Shown here piece by piece: positions 47,898-59,040 of a stretch of 64,000 bases of DNA. Position numbers and translations under genes: made by a program. Every line of letters starts with the position of its first letter. Position 1 is the stretch's first letter. The notes under the pieces were generated by a model. It worked only from the letters and a program-made list of their open reading frames with translations, made no database searches and was not told the DNA's origin. Origin of the DNA: Photobacterium angustum (GTDB lineage: Bacteria; Pseudomonadota; Gammaproteobacteria; Enterobacterales; Vibrionaceae); assembly GCF_002954615.1 (NCBI RefSeq), contig NZ_MSCJ01000003.1:62001-126000 (forward strand), read 5' to 3'.

Positions 47898-49360
47898 GTG
47901 GATGGATCCAGTTTGACTTTAATTGATACCGGAGATTTAACCCTTTGCCATCATCAAGGCTCGCGCCAGCAGAGTTTGTTTAATGCTATTCGCGATAAAA
48001 TCACCCAAGGATATTGGCCGAAGAACAGTAAGTTGCCATCAACTCGTCATCTAGCACAAATACTCGATGTCAGTCGTAATACGATTATTGCCACATACGA
48101 CCAACTTGTTGCTGAAGGTTATATTCGTAGCCAAGCAGGTAGCGGTTTTTATGTCGCAGCCACCCTACCAGATCATTACCTCACGACAACGAGCAGTGAA
48201 GATTCATTTAAACACCCCACAATCAAACAACAAATAATGCCTTTGCTCCTGGCGTGCCAGATCTTGTCGCATTTCCTAGAAAAAAGTGGCAACGTCTTTA
48301 TCAACAACAGTTTGATAGAACACAGTTTCTTGGTTGTAACGATCTACAAGGTGAGTGGGAGTTTAGAGAAGTATTAACGCATTACTTGAAAACATCACGC
48401 TCTGTCGATGTCACCGCCGATAGGATCATTTCGACATCGGGGGCACAACAAGCATTAATCATGGCAATAATGGCGAGCACTCAGCCTAACGACATAGTCC
48501 TTGTTGAAAATCCCGGTTATGCTCAAATGCGTAAAGTGGTCAACTTATGCAATGTAAAAATAGCGCCGCTTTCAGTGACTCCATTCGATGGAATTAACCT
48601 TCAACAGTTATCGAAAACAAAAGCTAAAGCCATTTACATTACCCCCAGTAACCAATATCCATTAGGCACAACACTTAATATCTCTCAACGGATCCAATTA
48701 CTTAAATGGGCAAGCCAACATAATGTGACCATTATTGAAGATGATTACGACAGTGAATTTCAATATGCTCATCGCCCTTACCCTTCCTTACAAGGACTTG
48801 CAGCTCAAACCAATATCAATGTGAATATCATCTATATTGGTACTTTTAGTAAAGTGATGTGCAACAGTATTCGTCTTGGTTATATGGTCGTCCCTCAAGC
48901 TCTTCTTCCTCGTTACCTTGAGATAAAAGATGCTCTCAGCGGTGAAACGCAAGCCCAGCTTCAATTAGCAATGACGGAGTTTATTCATGACGGCCACTTG
49001 CTTCGTCACATTCGGAAAATGCGCCGGCTATACCAAGCAAAACGTCAACAAATGATCCAAAGTATTAAAGACAGTTTTGCCCAGCAATGGGAAGTGATCA
49101 GTCAAGCTGCGGGGCTTCATATTACCGTAAGATGGCACCAGAACGTCTGTGAAAAACAATTTTGTGAAGAGGCTTTTCAGCACAATATTATTGTACGACC
49201 ACTGAGTTATTATGAACTGCCGAATACTATTCGAAACTGGCAGGGTATTGTACTTGGCTTTGGTAATACCTCCATTGATGACATGCCAGTATTGATTGAG
49301 AACTTGAAAACTTGCTTCAACCACCTGTTAACGGAAAACAGACATGATGAATATTTTTAG
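47898..49360 (+). pseudogene. MocR/GntR-aminotransferase regulator broken by a frameshift
   Basis: The N-terminal part (47898-48240) encodes a GntR winged helix (SLFNAIRDKITQGYWP, LPSTRHLAQILDVSRNT). A different frame from about 48212 on encodes the type-I aminotransferase part beginning AFAPGVPDLVAFP and including the PLP-lysine region GTFSKVMCNSIRLGY. The two frames overlap at about 48212-48240, where a one-base loss (or two-base gain) would restore a single protein of about 485 residues of the PdxR/MocR type. Sequence error, true inactivation and recoding remain possible. It faces the PNPOx-family gene, its likely target. Confidence 0.8.
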
Positions 49361-50338: not shown

Positions 50339-50545
50339 TTACTGGTGACAATAACACTCCTTAAAAATATCACGGCAAATTTTCTGCCACCATAACTCTG
50401 CATAAGTCTCTTCTTTACTAATTAATTCAGAGTGACTTCCCAACTCTGTTACCTGCCCATCTTCCAGTACCAAAATACGATCGGCGTTTTTAATAGAATT
50501 TAAGCGATGAGCGATACTAATCCCCGTTCTGCCTTGGCAGACATC
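50339..50545 (-). pseudogene. Remnant of a type I secretion ABC ATPase, C-terminus
   Basis: About 68 codons encode the last part of an HlyB/RtxB-like ATPase. There is VCQGRTGISIAHRLNSIKNA, including the H-loop His, then RILVLEDGQVTELGSHSEL and an ISKEETYAELWWQ tail. The preceding Walker A, signature and Walker B parts are absent; upstream sequence reads as unrelated. It is therefore a fragment, not a functional gene. A second, more damaged copy lies about 1 kb to the right. Confidence 0.75.
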
Positions 50546-51418
50546 ATAGAAAGCGGATAAAGTAAAATAAATAAATAAAAAGGGGCCAATTATCAAAGAC
50601 TGTTACAAAGCTTGACTCCTTTCTTTCACTAACCATCATATCCGGAGTGATAAACCACATTCCAACAAAAAGGGAAATAAATACCACATAAAACAACATT
50701 TATTAAGGTAACGTTAGTGATTTTTCCTTTTGTGCATTTGTGCATTTGTGCATTTGTACATTTGTACACCACCAAACACCAAAACAGAGCGGAAGCGTAA
50801 ACAAATAGAATAGGAATAAAAAAGAGAGGATTTCAGCATTGTTTGAATAAGTCTTTAAGTTATTAAAAATAGCCAAATCAAGATCAATTTCAACACCGAT
50901 AATTTAAGTATATACAACAAAAAAATACAGATAACCAACTGCCAATAAAGACAACAAGCTATCCTAATAGTTTAGTTTTTTATCATTAAAAAATCATTCA
51001 ACCCAAAATATTGTTAGAACAAAAATATGATGAAATATTAAATAATCACATTTTTAGCCAACAAGTAAAATACAGTAGTTTTAACTGTTCGAGTGAGTGC
51101 AACATTAAATAGGTTTAGATACTATATATTTCAAAAAATTTAATATCATGTCACGATTCATGGTTACTACTACAATTAAGAAGAACAGTTCAACCTTATC
51201 TAATACACATTTCAAAGGCTCTGTTCAGGCTTTAAGTTCAAATGTATAACTAATTGCTTTCTATAATGACTTTAATTTCGTACGTCTTATTTTTCTTCAA
51301 AGGCTTAATACCGTAATCAGCCAGATCAACACAGATGCTGAACAGACCCCATTTCAAAACTATGTCTTCTGCAACCACAATCCTGAATAAATACCTTCGG
51401 TGATATTTATTTCAAAAT
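50546..51418. other. Decayed AT-rich region
   Basis: About 0.9 kb without an intact gene. One short frame on the minus strand (about 51250-51400, ending KNKTYEIKVIIESN) could be the tail of a lost gene of unknown type. The region also holds a small 8-bp tandem repeat. Together with the two ABC remnants, it looks like the ruins of a former secretion or toxin locus. Confidence 0.5.
50732..50768 (+). repeat. Tandem repeat of GTGCATTT
   Basis: Three perfect GTGCATTT units, one GTACATTT and a partial GTACA follow each other. The repeat lies in non-coding decayed DNA. Confidence 0.85.
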
Positions 51419-51807: not shown

Positions 51808-51884
51808 TGGCGGAGCGGACGGGACTCGAACCCGCGACCCCCGGCGTGACAGGCCGGTATTCTAACCAACTGAACTACCGCTCC
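51808..51884 (-). tRNA. tRNA-Asp (anticodon GTC)
   Basis: The 77-nt gene has a paired acceptor stem (GGAGCGG / CCGCTCC), D-arm AGTTCAGTTGGTTAGAA, anticodon loop CTGTCAC, a T-loop with GTTCGAGTC, and an encoded CCA end. It is second in a two-tRNA transcript after tRNA-Ser. Confidence 0.97.
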
Positions 51885-51923
51885 AATTCTTTATGAAACC
51901 CGATAAATCGAATCTCTAGAATA

Positions 51924-52014
51924 TGGCGGAGAGATAGGGATTTGAACCCTAGATACGCTATAAACGTATGCCGGTTTTCAAGACCGGTGCTTTCAACCAC
52001 TCAGCCATCTCTCC
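51924..52014 (-). tRNA. tRNA-Ser (anticodon TGA)
   Basis: The 91-nt gene has an acceptor stem GGAGAGA / TCTCTCC, a class II long variable arm (CATACGTTTATAGCGTA), anticodon loop CTTGAAA, T-loop GTTCAAATC, and an encoded CCA. It is first in the transcript, 39 bp before tRNA-Asp. Confidence 0.97.
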
Positions 52015-52149: not shown

Positions 52150-52806
52150 TTATCCTGCTAATTTTTCAGCATTAATCTGTGCTTCAAGTTTTTCTCGACC
52201 TTGAGGCGTTATACGTAAACATTCTTCAAATTGACTAAAACGCTGACTTTCAATCTGATAATAAGCCGCCAGTAAATCAGGTTCTATCCCGACTCGCTGA
52301 CGCGCTTCTTTTAAACTTAAATCCATTAGTTCTGCACAATTAATGGTATCTAATGGCTGACAGTCAGAAACGTATCCAAGATGCGCCGCTTTCTTAAATA
52401 CAGTAATATCATCATCAGAAAATTTATACGGCCCTGGGTATAAATATTTAGCAGCAAACGCGTACATCTTCTTTTCTGCCGTTGACATTCGATTTGATGA
52501 TCCCATCGTAAAACCAATAACAAATGCCTCATCTTTCGGTAGCATTCCCCGCCCTAATAAAAGGTGAATAACATCATGATCTTCTAAGCTAACAGCGCCA
52601 TTAAATAAATTGATCCAAGGGATATCAAACTTAGGATTCTCAATTAATCTCACAATCAACGGTATATCTGCGCTGCCAGCAGCCACTGGAGCTTGAGTCG
52701 CTAAACATTCTCTAATGGTGGCATTTTCTTCTTCTAACGGTACGTACCATTTTTTCCAATGCGTGCCGTTTGCTGGTAGTAAGTTTTTCTTGATTCCATT
52801 TTCCAT
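52150..52806 (-). CDS. Unknown protein, last gene of the TelA operon
   Basis: The 218-residue soluble protein has no recognised family. It has no signal peptide or membrane helix. Helices predominate: a central NGAVSLEDHDVIHLLLGRGM (about 69-88) resembles an ankyrin-like or HEAT-like helix pair, and the C-terminal helix has SQFEECLRITPQGREKLEA. It begins 20 bp after the TelA stop, so it is co-transcribed with the operon and likely cytoplasmic, like TelA. It may be a partner or regulator of TelA; that is inference from position only. Confidence 0.65.
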   Translation of the reverse strand: MENGIKKNLLPANGTHWKKWYVPLEEENATIRECLATQAPVAAGSADIPLIVRLIENPKFDIPWINLFNGAVSLEDHDVIHLLLGRGMLPKDEAFVIGFTMGSSNRMSTAEKKMYAFAAKYLYPGPYKFSDDDITVFKKAAHLGYVSDCQPLDTINCAELMDLSLKEARQRVGIEPDLLAAYYQIESQRFSQFEECLRITPQGREKLEAQINAEKLAG

Positions 52807-52826
52807 CTTAAATTCCTTTTCAAAGA

Positions 52827-54005
52827 TTAAAGTTCAATTAACTGAGACAAATTCTGTTGAATGTCTTTGCCCTTTTCAGCATCTTTAATACGGCTTTCCA
52901 TTTGCTCGGTTAATTGATCCATTTCTAAAATAGATTGCGCCATTTGCGGTAAAGCTTTAACTCGATACTGGCTAATATCATTTAATGCAGCATTAATATT
53001 TGAAAAGGCTTGTTTTAACTTACTGATATCTAATTGGCTCTCAGAAGCTTGTTTTTGGATACTGACCCCTTGATCTCGAAGTTGCTCACTGGTTTGTAAT
53101 ATCAGATCATTAGTAGTGTCATTAACAGCTTGGGTCGCATCTAATAGTTTTTTCTGATGTTGAAGTGCAATCGACATGACTGACGCTGTTTCAAGCGCAG
53201 ATACCGTCACATTTATCGCGCGATCAACACCTCGAATAAGCTCGCGGTTATTTTGCATGATAACTTCAGTGGTAATCACCGCTTGCTGATTAACAGCCAA
53301 TGTTTGCTGCAAATCCATCACACGCTGACGTAATGGAAATAACACCTGCTCTTGTAAAAACTTAACTTTGGTTTCTGTATTTTGGGCTGTCTCGATTGTT
53401 TGATTTACTTTCTCATCAAGCAATTGACCAAAACGAACATAATCTTCAAGCAGAAATGTTAACTCACGATAACGAATTTGATCGGCTTCAAGCGTGATAT
53501 TGTCACGTTGTAATTGTGCTTGACCGCCTCTAAGCGATTGCACAATATCCTTAATCACCCCTTCTGCCGTTTGATAACGTGAAAACCATTTCGCTATAGG
53601 GGTTCCAACAAAAGGAAGAAAGCTGAGTAAACGTCGTATCGTGCCCATGGTAAAGTCAGTACGATTGGGGTTAACCGCATTCACTTGTTGTTGCAAGTCT
53701 AATAAGCTTTTTGCTGTTCCACCACCATCTTGAGCATCATCAACTAACGTATGCAATGGGGTTTTCAATAACTGGCTACATTGAGCTAACTGACGACAAC
53801 TATCTTCACCTAAAGAGGTCATCAAGTTTGTCATGTCTCGTTGCTGCGTTAAATCACGTTCGCCGATAGCTAATAACATTGAAACGGTTTCTTCTACTTT
53901 CGTACTGATTTTATCGTGAGTTTCAGGAACTGATACTGGAATATCTAAGGCTTGTTTTACCGTATCAGGCGTCGCTACTATAAGAGTCGTATTTTCCTGT
54001 GCCAT
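52827..54005 (-). CDS. TelA-family (toxic anion resistance) protein
   Basis: The 392-residue cytoplasmic protein matches the TelA family by layout and pattern: a variable N-terminus (1-60), a conserved helical core with FLPFVGTPIAKWFSRYQTAEG (about 133-153), VKFLQEQVLFPLRQRVMDLQQ (about 219-239), and long coiled coils to about 370. The family is linked to tellurite resistance in some plasmids and to Ter/vWA stress modules, but the biochemical activity is unknown. In this operon it follows a membrane coiled-coil protein by 9 bp, so it may act at the inner membrane. Confidence 0.85.
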   Translation of the reverse strand: MAQENTTLIVATPDTVKQALDIPVSVPETHDKISTKVEETVSMLLAIGERDLTQQRDMTNLMTSLGEDSCRQLAQCSQLLKTPLHTLVDDAQDGGGTAKSLLDLQQQVNAVNPNRTDFTMGTIRRLLSFLPFVGTPIAKWFSRYQTAEGVIKDIVQSLRGGQAQLQRDNITLEADQIRYRELTFLLEDYVRFGQLLDEKVNQTIETAQNTETKVKFLQEQVLFPLRQRVMDLQQTLAVNQQAVITTEVIMQNNRELIRGVDRAINVTVSALETASVMSIALQHQKKLLDATQAVNDTTNDLILQTSEQLRDQGVSIQKQASESQLDISKLKQAFSNINAALNDISQYRVKALPQMAQSILEMDQLTEQMESRIKDAEKGKDIQQNLSQLIEL

Positions 54006-54014
54006 TGTTCATCC

Positions 54015-54824
54015 TTAACGAGTACTGTATTTTTGTGCGCGCTGTGCAAGTAGACGTAACTCTTCCATTGCCGTTTCTAATTCCATTCCTTGCTGCGATG
54101 AAAGAAGCGATATTTGAGAAAGTTGCGTTGTGACACGATCAAGCTCTGTCATTGCTTGTTCGTTTTCGATTAATACGGTTGTGATATGCTGATGAGCATC
54201 TTTATAGATAACAATTCGATGCTGCAAAGCATCTATTTTTTGTTCTAATAAGATTTGAGGCGATGTGATTTGTGTTAATTGGCAATTAAGATCACTGAGT
54301 TGCTGTTGAATATAGTCAATATCAATACCTGAGACGGCTTTAGTATTTACAATCACTGTCTGCAAATTATCTAACGCTCCAACAAAGACCGCTTCAGCCA
54401 TTGTGATATAGCGTGAATACGCTAATTCGTCCTTATTTAAGACCCTATCTAATACCTGCTGGAACGCATTGAATTTTAAACCTAATTGATCAACTTGCTT
54501 TAGCGCATCTTGCTGTTTTATTTGGCTTAGCTCTTGCTTTAAATCAACCAGCGTTTGCTCTCGTTGTTGTAATAAACTGCGATGATACTTCTCAACAATA
54601 GCCTTAGCATGAGAATTATAATTAACCTTATATCCCCACAGTAATTTACTAAAGCATAATGCAGTAGCTGCAATCGTGACTCCCCAGCTCAATAACTCAC
54701 CAGAGAACAATAAGCTATATACGGCTCCAATCGCGCCCACCACACCACTATATATAACAATCGGGTGTTGAATACTGTTTGAAATTACCTGATTTTTAAT
54801 AGCTTGAGGCGACAGAATATCCAA
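54015..54824 (-). CDS. Membrane-anchored coiled-coil protein
   Basis: The 269-residue protein starts at TTG 54824, preceded by AGGAAG. Two membrane helices lie in the N-terminal part (about 22-40 and 46-66, joined by a short turn). They are followed by about 190 residues of coiled coil rich in Gln and Leu (QQREQTLVDLKQELSQIKQQ near 89-108). The coiled coil would face the cytoplasm, where TelA, encoded next, could bind. No family is recognised. Confidence 0.7.
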   Translation of the reverse strand: MDILSPQAIKNQVISNSIQHPIVIYSGVVGAIGAVYSLLFSGELLSWGVTIAATALCFSKLLWGYKVNYNSHAKAIVEKYHRSLLQQREQTLVDLKQELSQIKQQDALKQVDQLGLKFNAFQQVLDRVLNKDELAYSRYITMAEAVFVGALDNLQTVIVNTKAVSGIDIDYIQQQLSDLNCQLTQITSPQILLEQKIDALQHRIVIYKDAHQHITTVLIENEQAMTELDRVTTQLSQISLLSSQQGMELETAMEELRLLAQRAQKYSTR

Positions 54825-54835
54825 TCTACTTCCTT

Positions 54836-56362
54836 TTAATAAGTTTCACTCATCAACGCAATTTCAACGCGCATTAATCTATTGGCATAACGGCGCTGAC
54901 TTTCCCCACTTAATTGAATTAATGGTTCATCACTTCCTTTACCAACAGCATGAATACGACTGGCTTCAAAGCCGAGTTGATTAACTAAATAGCTTTTTAC
55001 TGCCTTTGCGCGTTTGGCTGATAACTCGATATTTAAAGCTTTATCACCACGTAGTCCCGTATGACCTTCAACTAGAATTCGAAAATTCGGGTAATGCGAT
55101 AAACTTTCAGCAGTAAGATTAAGTTGCTGCTGACCGTTTGGTGTCAGTCGCTCGCTACCACTAGAGAAAATAACTGGACGGGTTTTCAACGTGCCTATTT
55201 CACTCATATGTGCCCATTGCTTTGCACTTAATGCAGCAAATACTTCGCTAACTGGCCTGTGTGATGGTTCATTTAAAGCAATATCATTAAGTGTTTGTTG
55301 TACAGTTTGAATGGGAGGGGAATGTATTATCCTATAAGGATCATTATTGGGTAACCATTGTTGTGGCGTTGCTGATGTATCATTGATAATTGTAATAGTG
55401 CTATCGATGGTATCGAATAGTAACTGGGATTGACTAAACCAAGCAGAGACGTTGTCGTTGAGCCCTATCCATCGTACACCGTTAAGCAACTGCTTAACTT
55501 GAGTATTCGGTAAGTCTGTAATACTTTCGAGCTCTTGAACTAATACATTAGGATTATCACGATAATATTTAAGTACCTTAAAATAGGTTGCTAATACGCG
55601 ATCAAGTATTTCAGGCTTATTTTTAATCACGGCTTTATTGGCAAGAAGTACATCAACAATTAAGTTTTTCGTATCATCAGTACTAATAATGGTTTCAAAA
55701 TTACCTTCGGCAAGCGCGGTTGACACGTCAGGCTCCCACAATACAGCAACATCTAATTTGCCTTCGATTAATTGTGATAACGCATCGCTTGAGCCAGCAG
55801 TCGCAACTCGTTTAACGTTGTTAGATTTAAAAAGATTAAGATCGAAGTGAGAAGATATCGCGCTCAGTAAGTGTTCACTGGGTGAATCATGAGTGTAACC
55901 AATCGATAAGGATTTATTCGTTTTCAAATCATTGATCGACGTAACAACATCGGTATTCGCGACAATAGCATCGCCACCATGTGACTCATCAATGACAGCT
56001 ACGATACTGGCTGGGTAACGGTATACTTTACCAGATGTAATATAAGCATCCACACTTGCAACGGCAAAATCTAATTCACCGTTTGCTATACCTTCCATAC
56101 GTTGGGAGTAATCAGCGCCATCATCAATACAAGATAAACGATAACCTTCATTGCGTAATAATCGTCGCATTTCTTTAGAGCATAGTGGGTAATAGCCAAC
56201 CCAGTTATCCATCCCTATTTTTATTACACCTTTGGTATTACGCGCATCCGATGTATCAGCATAAACATGATCATCAATATGGGGCTGTAAAAACTTATAG
56301 CTAATTAACCCCATTACCCCTAGCACTAAAATAAAAAGAGCAAACTTACTATGCTTTTGCAT
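54836..56362 (-). CDS. Solute-binding protein fused to an OmpA peptidoglycan-binding domain
   Basis: The 508-residue protein has an N-terminal membrane anchor or signal (about 7-24) and a periplasmic NMT1/SsuA-type binding domain (about 45-275, with IKIGMDNWVGYYPLC and LDVAVLWEPDVSTAL). A linker follows (about 275-395), then a C-terminal OmpA-like domain (about 398-508). In the last, the Arg of LSAKRA (R451) is kept, but the Asp of the GHTD motif, which contacts diaminopimelate, is Gly436 (GHTG). There is no ABC permease or ATPase in the operon, so binding is probably for sensing rather than uptake. A second fusion of the same kind is two genes upstream. Confidence 0.78.
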   Translation of the reverse strand: MQKHSKFALFILVLGVMGLISYKFLQPHIDDHVYADTSDARNTKGVIKIGMDNWVGYYPLCSKEMRRLLRNEGYRLSCIDDGADYSQRMEGIANGELDFAVASVDAYITSGKVYRYPASIVAVIDESHGGDAIVANTDVVTSINDLKTNKSLSIGYTHDSPSEHLLSAISSHFDLNLFKSNNVKRVATAGSSDALSQLIEGKLDVAVLWEPDVSTALAEGNFETIISTDDTKNLIVDVLLANKAVIKNKPEILDRVLATYFKVLKYYRDNPNVLVQELESITDLPNTQVKQLLNGVRWIGLNDNVSAWFSQSQLLFDTIDSTITIINDTSATPQQWLPNNDPYRIIHSPPIQTVQQTLNDIALNEPSHRPVSEVFAALSAKQWAHMSEIGTLKTRPVIFSSGSERLTPNGQQQLNLTAESLSHYPNFRILVEGHTGLRGDKALNIELSAKRAKAVKSYLVNQLGFEASRIHAVGKGSDEPLIQLSGESQRRYANRLMRVEIALMSETY

Positions 56363-56376
56363 ATATGACCTTTTTC

Positions 56377-57156
56377 TTAATTAAAACTAGCGACATCAAA
56401 CTCTGCAGATTCTGCTAATACATTTTTTAGCCCTGCTAACAGTTTTTCTGGGTTATTAGCCGATTGGTAATAGGTGATCCCTTTTGCATTAAGCGCATGT
56501 TGCTCACCAATGCAAAAGCCTATGGTATGAATGGTAACGGGTGAGTCACGGTAGATACGATTAATCGCAGGTTGTGGATTTTCTCCTTGGCTTGCATCAC
56601 CATCGGTAACAATCACAACGTTATATTCCCCATAACCCAATTGTTTACTGGCTTGACGCTCTAATGCTGCGTAGCTCGAATCTAGAGAGCTTTTTAATGG
56701 TGTTGCACCACCAGCTGTTACATCATAAATCGCTTGTTTTAATGTCGCTCGATTATTATTGCCAAGTGGTACACGCAATGACGCATCTTTATTATCAAAA
56801 ACATATAACCCGACATTGGCTGAATTAGGAATATCGTTAATAAATGTTTGTATTGCTTGCTTTGCCGCGACAATTTTCTTTTGCCCATTACCACAATTAG
56901 TATTATCCATCGAACCGCTACCATCAAAAATTAGTAGGTAGTTAGTCGCCAGCCAATTATCGGAAACGAGTGCATTATCATTATTTAATGCTGGCCAATC
57001 ATTTTTTAATGCGTCAAATCCATATCCACTTGATGCATCTGTTTTGTTTATCTGTGCACTACTGTCTTTTGATCCTGTCGAGTTAACCCCAGAGCTCGGT
57101 TTAAAAAACACCACAGCAAAAGCAATAAGGCAGCAAGAATAAATTATAAATCTCAT
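56377..57156 (-). CDS. Membrane-anchored VWA-domain protein
   Basis: The 259-residue protein has an N-terminal membrane anchor (about 3-19, with two Cys) and a periplasmic von Willebrand A domain (about 72-250). The MIDAS is complete: D78-G-S80-G-S82, T151 (GGATPL) and D184 (VTDGDA). VWA domains with intact MIDAS bind metal and protein partners. It lies between the two SBP-OmpA genes with gaps of 11 and 14 bp, so it most likely binds one of them or a shared partner in the periplasm. Confidence 0.82.
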   Translation of the reverse strand: MRFIIYSCCLIAFAVVFFKPSSGVNSTGSKDSSAQINKTDASSGYGFDALKNDWPALNNDNALVSDNWLATNYLLIFDGSGSMDNTNCGNGQKKIVAAKQAIQTFINDIPNSANVGLYVFDNKDASLRVPLGNNNRATLKQAIYDVTAGGATPLKSSLDSSYAALERQASKQLGYGEYNVVIVTDGDASQGENPQPAINRIYRDSPVTIHTIGFCIGEQHALNAKGITYYQSANNPEKLLAGLKNVLAESAEFDVASFN

Positions 57157-57167
57157 ATCATGCCTAC

Positions 57168-58883
57168 TTATAAAGGTTGGAATACATCAGATTCAGCTTC
57201 TAACTGAATAATACGAAAGACGACACGCATATTTGATCGCCACTCAGATTCAGTTGCAGGAGCACAAGGTTCATTACCACACATCCCTGTTTTTGGATTA
57301 CCAAAACCATGACCAACTAAAGCAAACTGACTCGCATCTAAAGCAATGCCTTGATCGGTAGCGTATGTTAATACGCTTTGTTTAACGCTTTGCGCACGCG
57401 ATAAGCTGATATTGCGGTTGGATTGTTTAATACGGTTTAACACCACACCGGTTTCGCCTTTTTTCTTAGAGCGTAAATATTTCAAAGGATCACTGTGACC
57501 TTCAACAGTGATCACCGCACCACCATAAGTAGAGGCCAATTCAATTACACGCTTAAACTCTGTTTGATATAGCGACGAATTAAAGTTGTTTTGATTAGGC
57601 TGAAAAGCGACTTCAAAAGAAAACAGTTCGCCATCTGCCAATGAATTCTGTTGCTGTTTCTTTGCAACCACTGAAGCGACACGCTCACTGTTAAAACGTG
57701 ATTTATTATTAAACTCAATATCAGCACCTAATTGGGTAAAATCCCAATTTGCTAATTGAGGAAGTGAGGAAGCTGACGTTAAACCGAGTCGCTTTAACGT
57801 CGTTTGGATTTCTTTACTGACTTTCGTAATATTTCTTGGGTACGCCATGTCACTAAACAATTGCTTATTAGCGTTAATATCTAAATGCTCTGCGTCAGCA
57901 TAAAGCCCTTTTATATCTTCTATTGCATCGGGAGAATCAAGCAACAGATCAGCAGAATAAGACAATAACGGTGTCAATTTTGCGTTTTGAGCGTTCGCAT
58001 TATTAAACAAAACCTTCACTTCATCTGTTGCGCTATTTAACGCTTTTACAAAATTCATTACGTCACTGCGATGGCTATTAAAATAATCCGCTCGCACCGC
58101 ATAAACATCCGCTATCACTCGGTTAGCCGTTTTAGTTGACATTAATATCTTCGCGCCTTTAACCGAATCTTCAGATCCAGTACCTACAGCTCCCCCCGAT
58201 GTCAGTGCTAACGCATCAGGTAGAATTACAAATACAGCATCGACATCATTTTCATATAGCGCACTGGCTGGGCTATTATTCGTTCCAGTAAGATCGGGCA
58301 ACCATTTAATGGTGACATCATCAGGTGTTAATCCTGCATCTTTTAATACAGCTCCCATATAATCCACATGCGGACCATACGCTTGAAGCGCAATCGTCTT
58401 ACCTTTTAAATCTGCCACGGTACGAATAGTTGGTTTAACAACTAAAGCATCACCACCTGATGACCAAGATAATTGATGAATAATAATAGGGGTAACAGAA
58501 GGATTGCTGACGAGTAAATCAGAAGCAGCATTAACCATCCCTAATGTTCCGCGAAGGTATGGCGTTTTTCCTGATAGGTAATTCGTGAGCTGATCTGAAA
58601 ATTTATCATTTCGATTTAATCTAAATTTCAGTCCATAACTAGAAAAAAGAGAATTACTTGAGGTGATCGATTGGCTACCATTCGCATAAATCGTATTAAT
58701 ATCTGCGCCCCAAGTAATCACTGGCAGTTCAAAAGTCTGTTCATTAACTTTTGAAACTGGCGTATTAATAAGTTGGGCAAGTGGTATTGGATTTATATAT
58801 TGGGGTTTTGCTGCAGCAAACGTTGAAATCAATACAGCCAACAAAAAAAGCCAATACCGAAAATATCTGATCATCAATCCCAT
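57168..58883 (-). CDS. Solute-binding protein fused to an OmpA peptidoglycan-binding domain
   Basis: The ATG at 58883 (GGGGGA six bases upstream) is chosen over 58991, which would put 36 extra residues before the signal peptide. The 571-residue product has a signal sequence (about 4-25, LLAVLISTFAAA) and a type-2 solute-binding domain (about 45-330, with VADLKGKTIALQAYG and NDVDAVFVILPDA). A linker follows, and then a C-terminal OmpA domain (about 425-570). The diaminopimelate-binding pair is kept: Asp in EGHSDP and Arg in LSRAQ, separated by an unusually long insertion. It is the first gene of the six-gene operon. Confidence 0.78.
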   Translation of the reverse strand: MGLMIRYFRYWLFLLAVLISTFAAAKPQYINPIPLAQLINTPVSKVNEQTFELPVITWGADINTIYANGSQSITSSNSLFSSYGLKFRLNRNDKFSDQLTNYLSGKTPYLRGTLGMVNAASDLLVSNPSVTPIIIHQLSWSSGGDALVVKPTIRTVADLKGKTIALQAYGPHVDYMGAVLKDAGLTPDDVTIKWLPDLTGTNNSPASALYENDVDAVFVILPDALALTSGGAVGTGSEDSVKGAKILMSTKTANRVIADVYAVRADYFNSHRSDVMNFVKALNSATDEVKVLFNNANAQNAKLTPLLSYSADLLLDSPDAIEDIKGLYADAEHLDINANKQLFSDMAYPRNITKVSKEIQTTLKRLGLTSASSLPQLANWDFTQLGADIEFNNKSRFNSERVASVVAKKQQQNSLADGELFSFEVAFQPNQNNFNSSLYQTEFKRVIELASTYGGAVITVEGHSDPLKYLRSKKKGETGVVLNRIKQSNRNISLSRAQSVKQSVLTYATDQGIALDASQFALVGHGFGNPKTGMCGNEPCAPATESEWRSNMRVVFRIIQLEAESDVFQPL

Positions 58884-59012: not shown

Positions 59013-59040
59013 ATTATATAAACTATTTTTTGACTTTCAG
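59013..59040 (-). promoter_or_regulatory. Candidate promoter of the SBP-OmpA/TelA operon
   Basis: On the minus strand a -10 TATAAT (59013-59018) lies 16 bp after CTGAAA (59035-59040), a weak -35. It sits about 130 bp upstream of the chosen start of the first gene. Confidence 0.35.

What the first reader, a model, noticed from the sequence alone, without database searches (positions are those of the whole stretch)
52150..58883. Six-gene envelope operon: two SBP-OmpA fusions, a VWA protein, a membrane coiled-coil, TelA and an unknown protein
Seen: six minus-strand genes with gaps of only 9-20 bp. Two encode solute-binding domains fused to OmpA-like peptidoglycan-binding domains, and no transporter permease or ATPase is present. 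Between them is a VWA protein with a complete MIDAS. Downstream are a two-helix membrane protein with a long coiled coil, a TelA-family protein and an unknown soluble protein. Known: TelA and VWA domains recur in tellurite/Ter-type stress modules, and OmpA-like domains bind peptidoglycan. Inference: the operon may be a trans-envelope sensing or stress-defence assembly. The binding domains would be tethered to the wall, the VWA protein would relay in the periplasm, and the coiled-coil/TelA pair would respond in the cytoplasm. I do not recognise it as a described system.
Basis: partly seen in the sequence, partly recalled or inferred. Interest (0 to 1): 0.8.

Follow-up and report, generated by a model that had tools for sequence, protein, structure and literature searches.

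The report
Wall-tethered binding-protein and TelA envelope system
Six genes in a marine Photobacterium are one branch of an apparently undescribed envelope system, found scattered in bacteria and large phages, whose relatives mostly also carry ABC transporter genes that this branch appears to have lost.

Summary
In detail: six co-directed minus-strand genes (gaps 9-20 bp) encode SBP-OmpA1, VWA, SBP-OmpA2, a two-helix coiled-coil membrane protein, TelA and a sixth protein. They belong together: the first five recur in that order in 12 of 18 bacterial loci from several phyla, and similar sets occur in viral contigs and a 595-kb phage record.

Main correction: of 14 non-Photobacterium genomes with SBP-OmpA1, 12 encode a third binding protein, and in 9 an ABC permease and ATPase were seen too. 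Four of four Photobacterium genomes tested lack that binding protein and any close permease. They carry instead the "unknown soluble protein", whose motif (HDxxHx11E) and predicted fold are Coq4-like.

Best reading: a wall-tethered solute-sensing and envelope-protection complex, ancestrally coupled to a NitT/TauT-type ABC importer, here uncoupled. Function is inferred, not shown. The system is rare in the genome samples (2 of 398 Pseudomonadota). Seven paper searches and look-ups in three huge-phage papers showed no description. No TerD was found in the operon, the coiled-coil protein is not demonstrably XpaC, and no defence evidence exists.

The parts
57168..58883 (-). SBP-OmpA1 (571 aa): signal peptide (by eye), NMT1/SsuA/TauA-type binding domain, C-terminal OmpA-like peptidoglycan-binding domain
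   Evidence: GHSD Asp (D465) and R496 invariant in 16 of 16 rows
56377..57156 (-). VWA protein (259 aa) with N-terminal membrane anchor or signal (by eye); complete MIDAS
   Evidence: MIDAS invariant in 19 of 19; lipobox-like Cys in several homologues (read by eye)
54836..56362 (-). SBP-OmpA2 (508 aa): N-terminal TM anchor (by eye), NMT1-type binding domain, OmpA-like domain with the Arg but without the canonical Asp
54015..54824 (-). Two-TM protein with long helical/coiled-coil C-terminal part (269 aa, TTG start; topology by eye)
   Evidence: no Pfam family above cut-off
52827..54005 (-). TelA (PF05816), 392 aa, predicted cytoplasmic
52150..52806 (-). U6: Coq4-like protein (218 aa) with invariant HDxxHx11E motif
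59013..59040 (-). Promoter-like site upstream of the first gene (CTGAAA-16-TATAAT); consensus match only, and the region has fewer such sites (13) than its shuffles (mean 25.4)
51808..52014 (-). tRNA-Ser(tga) and tRNA-Asp(gtc) directly downstream, bounding the operon (not part of the system)

Best explanation
The six genes are the Photobacterium branch of a conserved multi-protein envelope system. SHOWN: a core of SBP-OmpA1, VWA, SBP-OmpA2, two-TM coiled coil and TelA (a different coiled-coil protein in the large-phage sets) keeps its order in bacteria of several phyla. It is usually accompanied, in the operon or elsewhere in the genome, by a third NitT/TauT-type binding protein, and often by an ABC permease and an ABC ATPase with intact motifs. 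Photobacterium lacks the third binding protein and any close permease, and carries a Coq4-like protein, as do Oceanobacter and two viral contigs. INFERRED: the SBP-OmpA proteins are held at the cell wall and bind a small, probably anionic ligand. The VWA protein, through metal-dependent contacts, joins them. The complex signals through the two-TM coiled-coil protein to TelA, which helps the inner membrane withstand envelope stress. In most relatives the ABC module imports the ligand or uses ATP to reset the complex. In Photobacterium binding is uncoupled from import, so the complex works as a sensor or stabiliser, with the Coq4-like protein binding a lipid or metal cofactor at the membrane.
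For: Conserved order. SBP3 in 12 of 14 other bacterial genomes and 0 of 4 Photobacterium. Permease. Oceanobacter keeps the ABC module at a second locus. ATPase motifs. Ligand-binding kin are taurine, sulfonate and nitrate SBPs. Wall-binding residues in OmpA1. MIDAS in 19 of 19. Coq4-like fold and motif. TelA and XpaC as envelope-stress genes in Gram-positives (passages read). Tree.
Against: No expression, interaction or phenotype data. OmpA2 lacks the canonical wall-binding Asp in 12 of 12 rows, so its tethering is doubtful. TM2 is not demonstrably XpaC. TelA has no solved relative by sequence and is not universal: 4 of 19 genomes or records gave no TelA match, among them the L025 genome and LR756511. 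In the Methylococcales the set is split (L018/L031, L019), and in L086 TelA lies upstream of SBP-OmpA1, so one fixed complex is not proven. A Lactococcus study ties a telA locus to tellurite sensitivity. Co-occurrence does not show physical assembly.
Confidence: 0.45

Rival explanations
1. A specialised nutrient importer: an NitT/TauT-family ABC uptake system with wall-anchored auxiliary binding proteins that hand a scarce sulfonate, nitrate-like or vitamin-precursor ligand to SBP3 and the permease. TelA, VWA and the coiled coil are assembly factors. The Photobacterium copy is a decaying or repurposed remnant.
For: SBP3, permease or ATPase beside the core in 7 of 18 bacterial loci and SBP3 somewhere in 12 of 14 non-Photobacterium genomes; SBP kinship to TauA, SsuA and nitrate SBPs; intact ATPase motifs.
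Against: Uptake does not need VWA, TelA or OmpA domains (established knowledge). In Photobacterium the other genes stay intact (SBP-OmpA1 83% identical between species) although no SBP3 or close permease is left. The two U6-bearing viral contigs also show no SBP3, though they are fragments.
Confidence: 0.25
2. A phage-phage or phage-host conflict device: carried by large phages to seal or alter the host envelope against superinfection or to keep an infected cell intact, and by bacteria as envelope-based defence.
For: Core present in phage record LR756511 and in viral contigs up to 494 kb; scattered distribution. Al-Shayeb 2020 states that huge phages encode membrane or surface proteins that may affect infection by other phages (one passage seen).
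Against: No PADLOC match except OmpA-domain hits to ZorB and weak hits of TelA to JetA (2e-4) and PtuB (0.083). Window neighbours on one side are an outer-membrane barrel, transaldolase and transketolase, not a defence island. No phage-challenge data.
Confidence: 0.15
3. A tellurite or toxic-anion resistance operon, as the TelA name suggests.
For: TelA, PF05816, E 1.9e-64; anion-type binding proteins. In Lactococcus cremoris lower levels of ORF53-TelA-TelB-TelC went with higher tellurite sensitivity, which its authors call the first functional link for that locus there (PMC13109727, passages).
Against: No TerD domain in the operon. In Listeria the TelA mutant is reported as 2-fold more sensitive to tellurite against 4-fold for nisin (passage citing Collins 2010). 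The other parts have no known tellurite role.
Confidence: 0.08
4. A stator-like machine akin to Mot/Zorya: wall-bound OmpA protein plus membrane coiled coil.
For: OmpA domain of SBP-OmpA2 matches MotB/ZorB models.
Against: Matches are confined to the shared OmpA fold. No MotA/ZorA-type match among the six proteins.
Confidence: 0.03

Closest known systems
NitT/TauT-family ABC importers (SsuABC, TauABC, NrtABC)
   Same: SBP domains of the NMT1/SsuA/TauA type; in relatives also a BPD_transp_1 permease and an ABC ATPase (for the phage copies)
   Different: Three SBPs, two of them fused to OmpA domains; VWA, two-TM coiled coil and TelA added; this window's branch has no permease or ATPase in the operon
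xpaC-telA (yaaN) envelope-stress pair of Firmicutes
   Same: TelA next to a small two-TM helical protein; in viral contig L029 that partner is PF10112 (XpaC family), and L036 has a close relative of it
   Different: The window's two-TM protein is not detectably PF10112; SBP-OmpA and VWA genes are not part of the Gram-positive pair (recalled)
Ter-type stress modules (TerD, TerY-VWA)
   Same: TelA and VWA domains occur (recalled)
   Different: No TerD here; the VWA here is membrane-anchored and predicted periplasmic
Coq4 (ubiquinone biosynthesis; Alr8543, PDB 6E12; 3MSQ)
   Different: No Pfam match at E 0.1; about 60% of the residues aligned, at rmsd 5.1; sits in an envelope operon and alone in viral contigs
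Zorya ZorAB / MotAB
   Same: OmpA-like wall-binding domain on a TM anchor
   Different: No MotA/ZorA partner among the six

Membership tests
NitT/TauT ABC importer | NMT1/SsuA/TauA-type binding domain | tested here: met
   (PF09084 E 1.1e-8 and 5.7e-8, above cut-off)
NitT/TauT ABC importer | Permease and ATPase encoded with it, in the window or its genome | tested here: not met
   None among the six genes. Best-scoring permease in G000 is 29% identical and lies in what looks by eye like a nitrate-assimilation locus. The ATPase was not searched for genome-wide. In relatives the feature is met in 9 of 14 genomes.
TelA (PF05816) | Pfam model above gathering score | tested here: met
   218 bits vs 30
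XpaC-TelA pair | Partner is PF10112 | tested here: not met
   Window protein no match; profile comparison probability 1.2% (with only 3 rows on the XpaC side); met only for the viral protein in L029
Ter system | TerD-type domain in the operon | tested here: not met
Coq4 | HDxxHx11E metal motif | tested here: met
   (motif as given in PMC9774615, passages read)
Coq4 | Coq4 fold | tested here: inconclusive
Coq4 | Sequence match to a Pfam family or to a Coq4 chain of known structure | tested here: not met
   so filed as Coq4-like, not as a member
Zorya / Mot stator | MotA/ZorA-type membrane subunit | tested here: not met
OmpA-like peptidoglycan binding | Canonical Asp and Arg (roles recalled) | tested here: inconclusive
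   SBP-OmpA1: both in 16 of 16. SBP-OmpA2: Arg 12 of 12, canonical Asp 0 of 12, a different Asp four residues on in 11 of 12

The most novel reading that the evidence does not exclude
A new kind of ATP-coupled, wall-tethered sensing machine shared by bacteria and some of the largest phages. Solute-binding domains nailed to the peptidoglycan report on the periplasm through a VWA adaptor to a TelA-type membrane-guarding coiled coil, with an ABC transporter (or, in Photobacterium, a Coq4-like lipid-binding protein) as an exchangeable output module. Large phages carry it to keep the envelope of the infected cell sound.
Probability: 0.2. Interest if true: 0.85.

Novelty: new variant of a known kind. 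Interest (0 to 1): 0.62.

Why it matters
TelA and the two-TM helical proteins are stress genes without a known mechanism. A conserved, compact system that fixes their partners (wall-bound binding proteins, a MIDAS protein, an ABC module) gives concrete complexes to test. Its presence in large phages suggests that the envelope function matters during infection. The apparent exchange of an ABC module for a Coq4-like protein separates sensing from transport and can be tested by deleting single genes. The 218-aa family (448 proteins; no Pfam assignment in the 120 rows shown) now has a fold hypothesis.

Tried and rejected
Ter link: no TerD in the operon. XpaC identity of the two-TM protein: rejected as unproven. 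PspA identity of the phage coiled-coil protein that replaces TelA: no PspA match in Pfam for 3 of 3 members, so 'PspA-like' is only an impression. Coq4 by sequence: nothing in Pfam or PDB. U6 in the phages collection by tblastn: no match, although 28 viral-contig loci have it. Terminase checks of the viral records: PF17289 hit only LR756511 of 10 records, and its terminase matched only itself and LR756504 of 11. The viral status of the IMG/VR contigs therefore rests on that collection's classification; neighbours in four of them (L029, L036, L037, L040) match PHROGs such as HNH nuclease, DNA ligase or protease, none a structural hallmark. L069 and L086 carry bacterial-type operons with TelA and TM2, and L069 groups with a Desulfobacterales protein, so they may be bacterial DNA. 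Clean empty site: G001 keeps the divergent outer-membrane gene, transaldolase and transketolase but has other genes, and no tRNA in the 13-kb stretch, where the operon would be, so no insertion point can be named. Genome sampling is thin. Two further Photobacterium genomes (G755, G767) have TelA of similar score but were not tested for SBP-OmpA1.

A structure of the two-TM protein and a plain Foldseek run with the Coq4-like model were never obtained: the machine was busy.
Full report
WHAT IS THERE. A tRNA-Ser and a tRNA-Asp follow at 52014-51808. A divergent outer-membrane barrel gene, transaldolase and transketolase lie on the other side. The genome is a Photobacterium: a P. angustum record has SBP-OmpA1 at 100% identity. 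Pfam finds TelA (218 bits), VWA, NMT1-type SBP domains and OmpA domains; the two-TM protein has no family above its cut-off and the last protein none at all. In SBP-OmpA1 the OmpA hit is below the cut-off, but the wall-binding Asp and Arg (roles recalled) are invariant in 16 of 16 rows. In SBP-OmpA2 the Arg is kept in 12 of 12, the canonical Asp in 0 of 12. The VWA MIDAS is complete in 19 of 19 rows.

CONSERVATION. A pattern scan of the species-genome collection with SBP-OmpA1 gave 17 loci; one more came from a sample of Pseudomonadota (G048). Scanned with family profiles, a VWA gene lies downstream of SBP-OmpA1 in 17 of these 18; in the other (L028) the contig ends inside SBP-OmpA1. SBP-OmpA2 comes next among the families in 14 of 18. 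Of the other four, L023 and L028 end too early; L018 has its SBP-OmpA2, two-TM gene, TelA and SBP3 on another contig of the same genome (L031); in L019 no SBP-OmpA2 was seen. The two-TM gene follows in 13 of 18 and TelA in 12 of 18 (four of the 12 are Photobacterium). L025 lacks TelA, 4 of 19 genomes or records gave no TelA match (the genomes of L019, L023 and L025, and LR756511). The complete five-gene order is seen in Gammaproteobacteria, Desulfobulbaceae, a deltaproteobacterial MAG and a Spirochaetales MAG; Schekmanbacteria, Desulfobacterales and Nitrospinota show parts of it (titles). A protein search returned 1716 relatives of SBP-OmpA1 among the 8000 candidates scored. Yet whole-genome samples show rarity: 2 of 398 Pseudomonadota genomes at E 1e-25, one being the window's own; 1 of 297 in the phylum of G434, being G434 itself; and 4 of 24 Photobacterium genomes with full-length SBP-OmpA1. 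The same four of those 24 carry TelA scoring like the window's (E about 1e-64); five others of the 24 carry only TelA proteins of other score classes. Two other TelA loci from Photobacterium (G764, G752) show different neighbours.

THE MISSING TRANSPORTER. In 7 of the 18 bacterial loci the core is joined by parts of a third binding protein, an ABC permease or an ABC ATPase: all three in L015, L020, L027 (ATPase cut by the contig end) and L030; permease and ATPase in L016 (its SBP3 on another contig, L076) and L019; SBP3 alone in L024, at a contig end. Oceanobacter (L021) and Schekmanbacteria (L025) have all three at a second locus, L070 and L077. L033, another contig of the L028 genome, has SBP-OmpA2, two-TM, TelA, SBP3, permease and ATPase in a row. 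So permease plus ATPase were seen in 9 of 14 non-Photobacterium genomes; the other five were not searched genome-wide for them. Across 26 genomes or records carrying system genes, SBP3 was found at E 1e-20 or better in 16 (12 of 14 non-Photobacterium bacteria, G440's copy with stops inside; plus G741, G744, G745 and LR756511). The ten without it are the four Photobacterium, two small MAGs (G433, G437), three viral contigs (G443, G740, G742) and Lak-A2. For the permease, the best-scoring match in the four Photobacterium genomes is 29% identical, against 55% in Oceanobacter. Walker A, signature and H-loop patterns are present in 12 of 12 ATPases checked; my Walker B pattern gave a chance first match in L009, whose ORF does contain ILLLDEP, and Lak-A2 has DEY at that site.

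PHAGES. The 595-kb record LR756511, which has a terminase match, carries SBP-OmpA1, VWA, SBP-OmpA2, a two-TM protein, a coiled-coil protein in TelA's place, SBP3, permease and ATPase in that order. IMG/VR contigs of 494 kb (L037) and 436 kb (L040) and a shorter one (L082, repeated in L084) have the same set; in L037 the second SBP-OmpA is reduced to its OmpA part. The two-TM proteins of L040 and L082 match the bacterial TM2 profile (8e-10 and 8e-12). L029 and L036 (49 and 76 kb) have SBP-OmpA1, VWA, OmpA-only, U6, a two-TM protein (PF10112 at E 2.4e-25 in L029) and TelA. Prevotella phage Lak-A2 has a reduced set: one SBP-OmpA, permease and ATPase, with a two-TM coiled coil beside them by eye and a TelA gene elsewhere; 11 other Lak records matched and were not examined. 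In a tree of 24 SBP-OmpA1 proteins (midpoint root), six viral proteins (LR756511 and contigs of 65-494 kb) form one clade (100/100); L029 and L036 fall on the bacterial side, as does L069, beside a Desulfobacterales protein; the window groups with P. lucens, Motilimonas and Oceanobacter (100/99). I infer that the large-phage sets are old and that at least one other acquisition took place. Motilimonas (ABC-type, no U6), Oceanobacter (both) and Photobacterium (U6 only) suggest that the ABC module was lost on the way to Photobacterium (inference).

MECHANISM. Shown: family membership, order, co-occurrence, conserved active residues. Inferred: location and action. SBP domains related to taurine, sulfonate and nitrate binders at the cell wall; a MIDAS protein at the membrane; a two-TM coiled coil and TelA on the inside. 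In Listeria a TelA mutant is reported as 4-fold more sensitive to nisin and 2-fold to tellurite, and xpaC rises in an Enterococcus liaR mutant (passages read in PMC12791056 and PMC10269926). Against this, a Lactococcus study links a telA-containing locus to tellurite sensitivity (passages, PMC13109727). On balance I favour envelope sensing and protection over tellurite chemistry. The retention of intact SBP genes in Photobacterium without SBP3 or a close permease argues that binding has a use besides import.

LITERATURE. Seven full-text searches on the system (listings only, in some cases capped) gave no title that describes the set; one more was on Coq4. Look-ups in the main text of the huge-phage paper PMC7162821 found no 'transporter', 'OmpA', 'TelA' or 'tellurite'; two Lak papers mention no OmpA or tellurite, and their 'transport' hits concern other proteins or sample handling. 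Supplements were not readable. The Ter-system paper of Anantharaman and colleagues was not held and is only recalled. Subscription journals and preprints are not covered, so 'undescribed' is provisional.

VERDICT. A real, conserved and apparently undescribed multi-gene envelope system built of known families, of which the window shows a variant without ABC module and with a Coq4-like protein.

Noticed in passing
window 47898-49360 (+): A MocR-type regulator (GntR helix-turn-helix plus aminotransferase domain) is split over two overlapping ORFs in different frames, while related Photobacterium records (L012-L014, L017) have one ORF of 481-526 aa there; a frameshift or sequencing error.
   Followed up: partly
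L016:604-2073, L024:1422-2891, L027:4260-5738 (all -): A related, divergently transcribed gene lies next to SBP-OmpA1 in three loci; the L027 copy is an AAA ATPase with an AAA_lid_3 domain. It might act on TelA-type coiled coils.
   Followed up: no
L041-L048, L050, L051, L053-L068: The Coq4-like gene occurs without the rest of the system in 26 of 28 viral-contig loci, some on contigs over 100 kb; its role there is unknown.
   Followed up: no
L073 and L074 (other Photobacterium genomes): Other TelA genes sit in different settings: one beside two small proteins that look TerD-like by eye, one beside a 1632-aa protein.
   Followed up: no
L036:10286-13449: The viral contig with the U6-type set also encodes a CsgG-like protein and a subtilase downstream.
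   Followed up: no
window 50339-50596 (-): Short ORF that by eye looks like the C-terminal end of an ABC exporter, probably a gene remnant; Pfam gave only a sub-threshold unrelated match.
   Followed up: no
L034:8394-9515 (Prevotella phage Lak-A2): Lak-A2 carries a TelA gene about 80 kb from its SBP-OmpA/ABC set.
   Followed up: partly
L086:3450-13436: In this 359-kb contig TelA lies upstream of SBP-OmpA1, and SBP-OmpA1 is spread over two overlapping ORFs.
   Followed up: no
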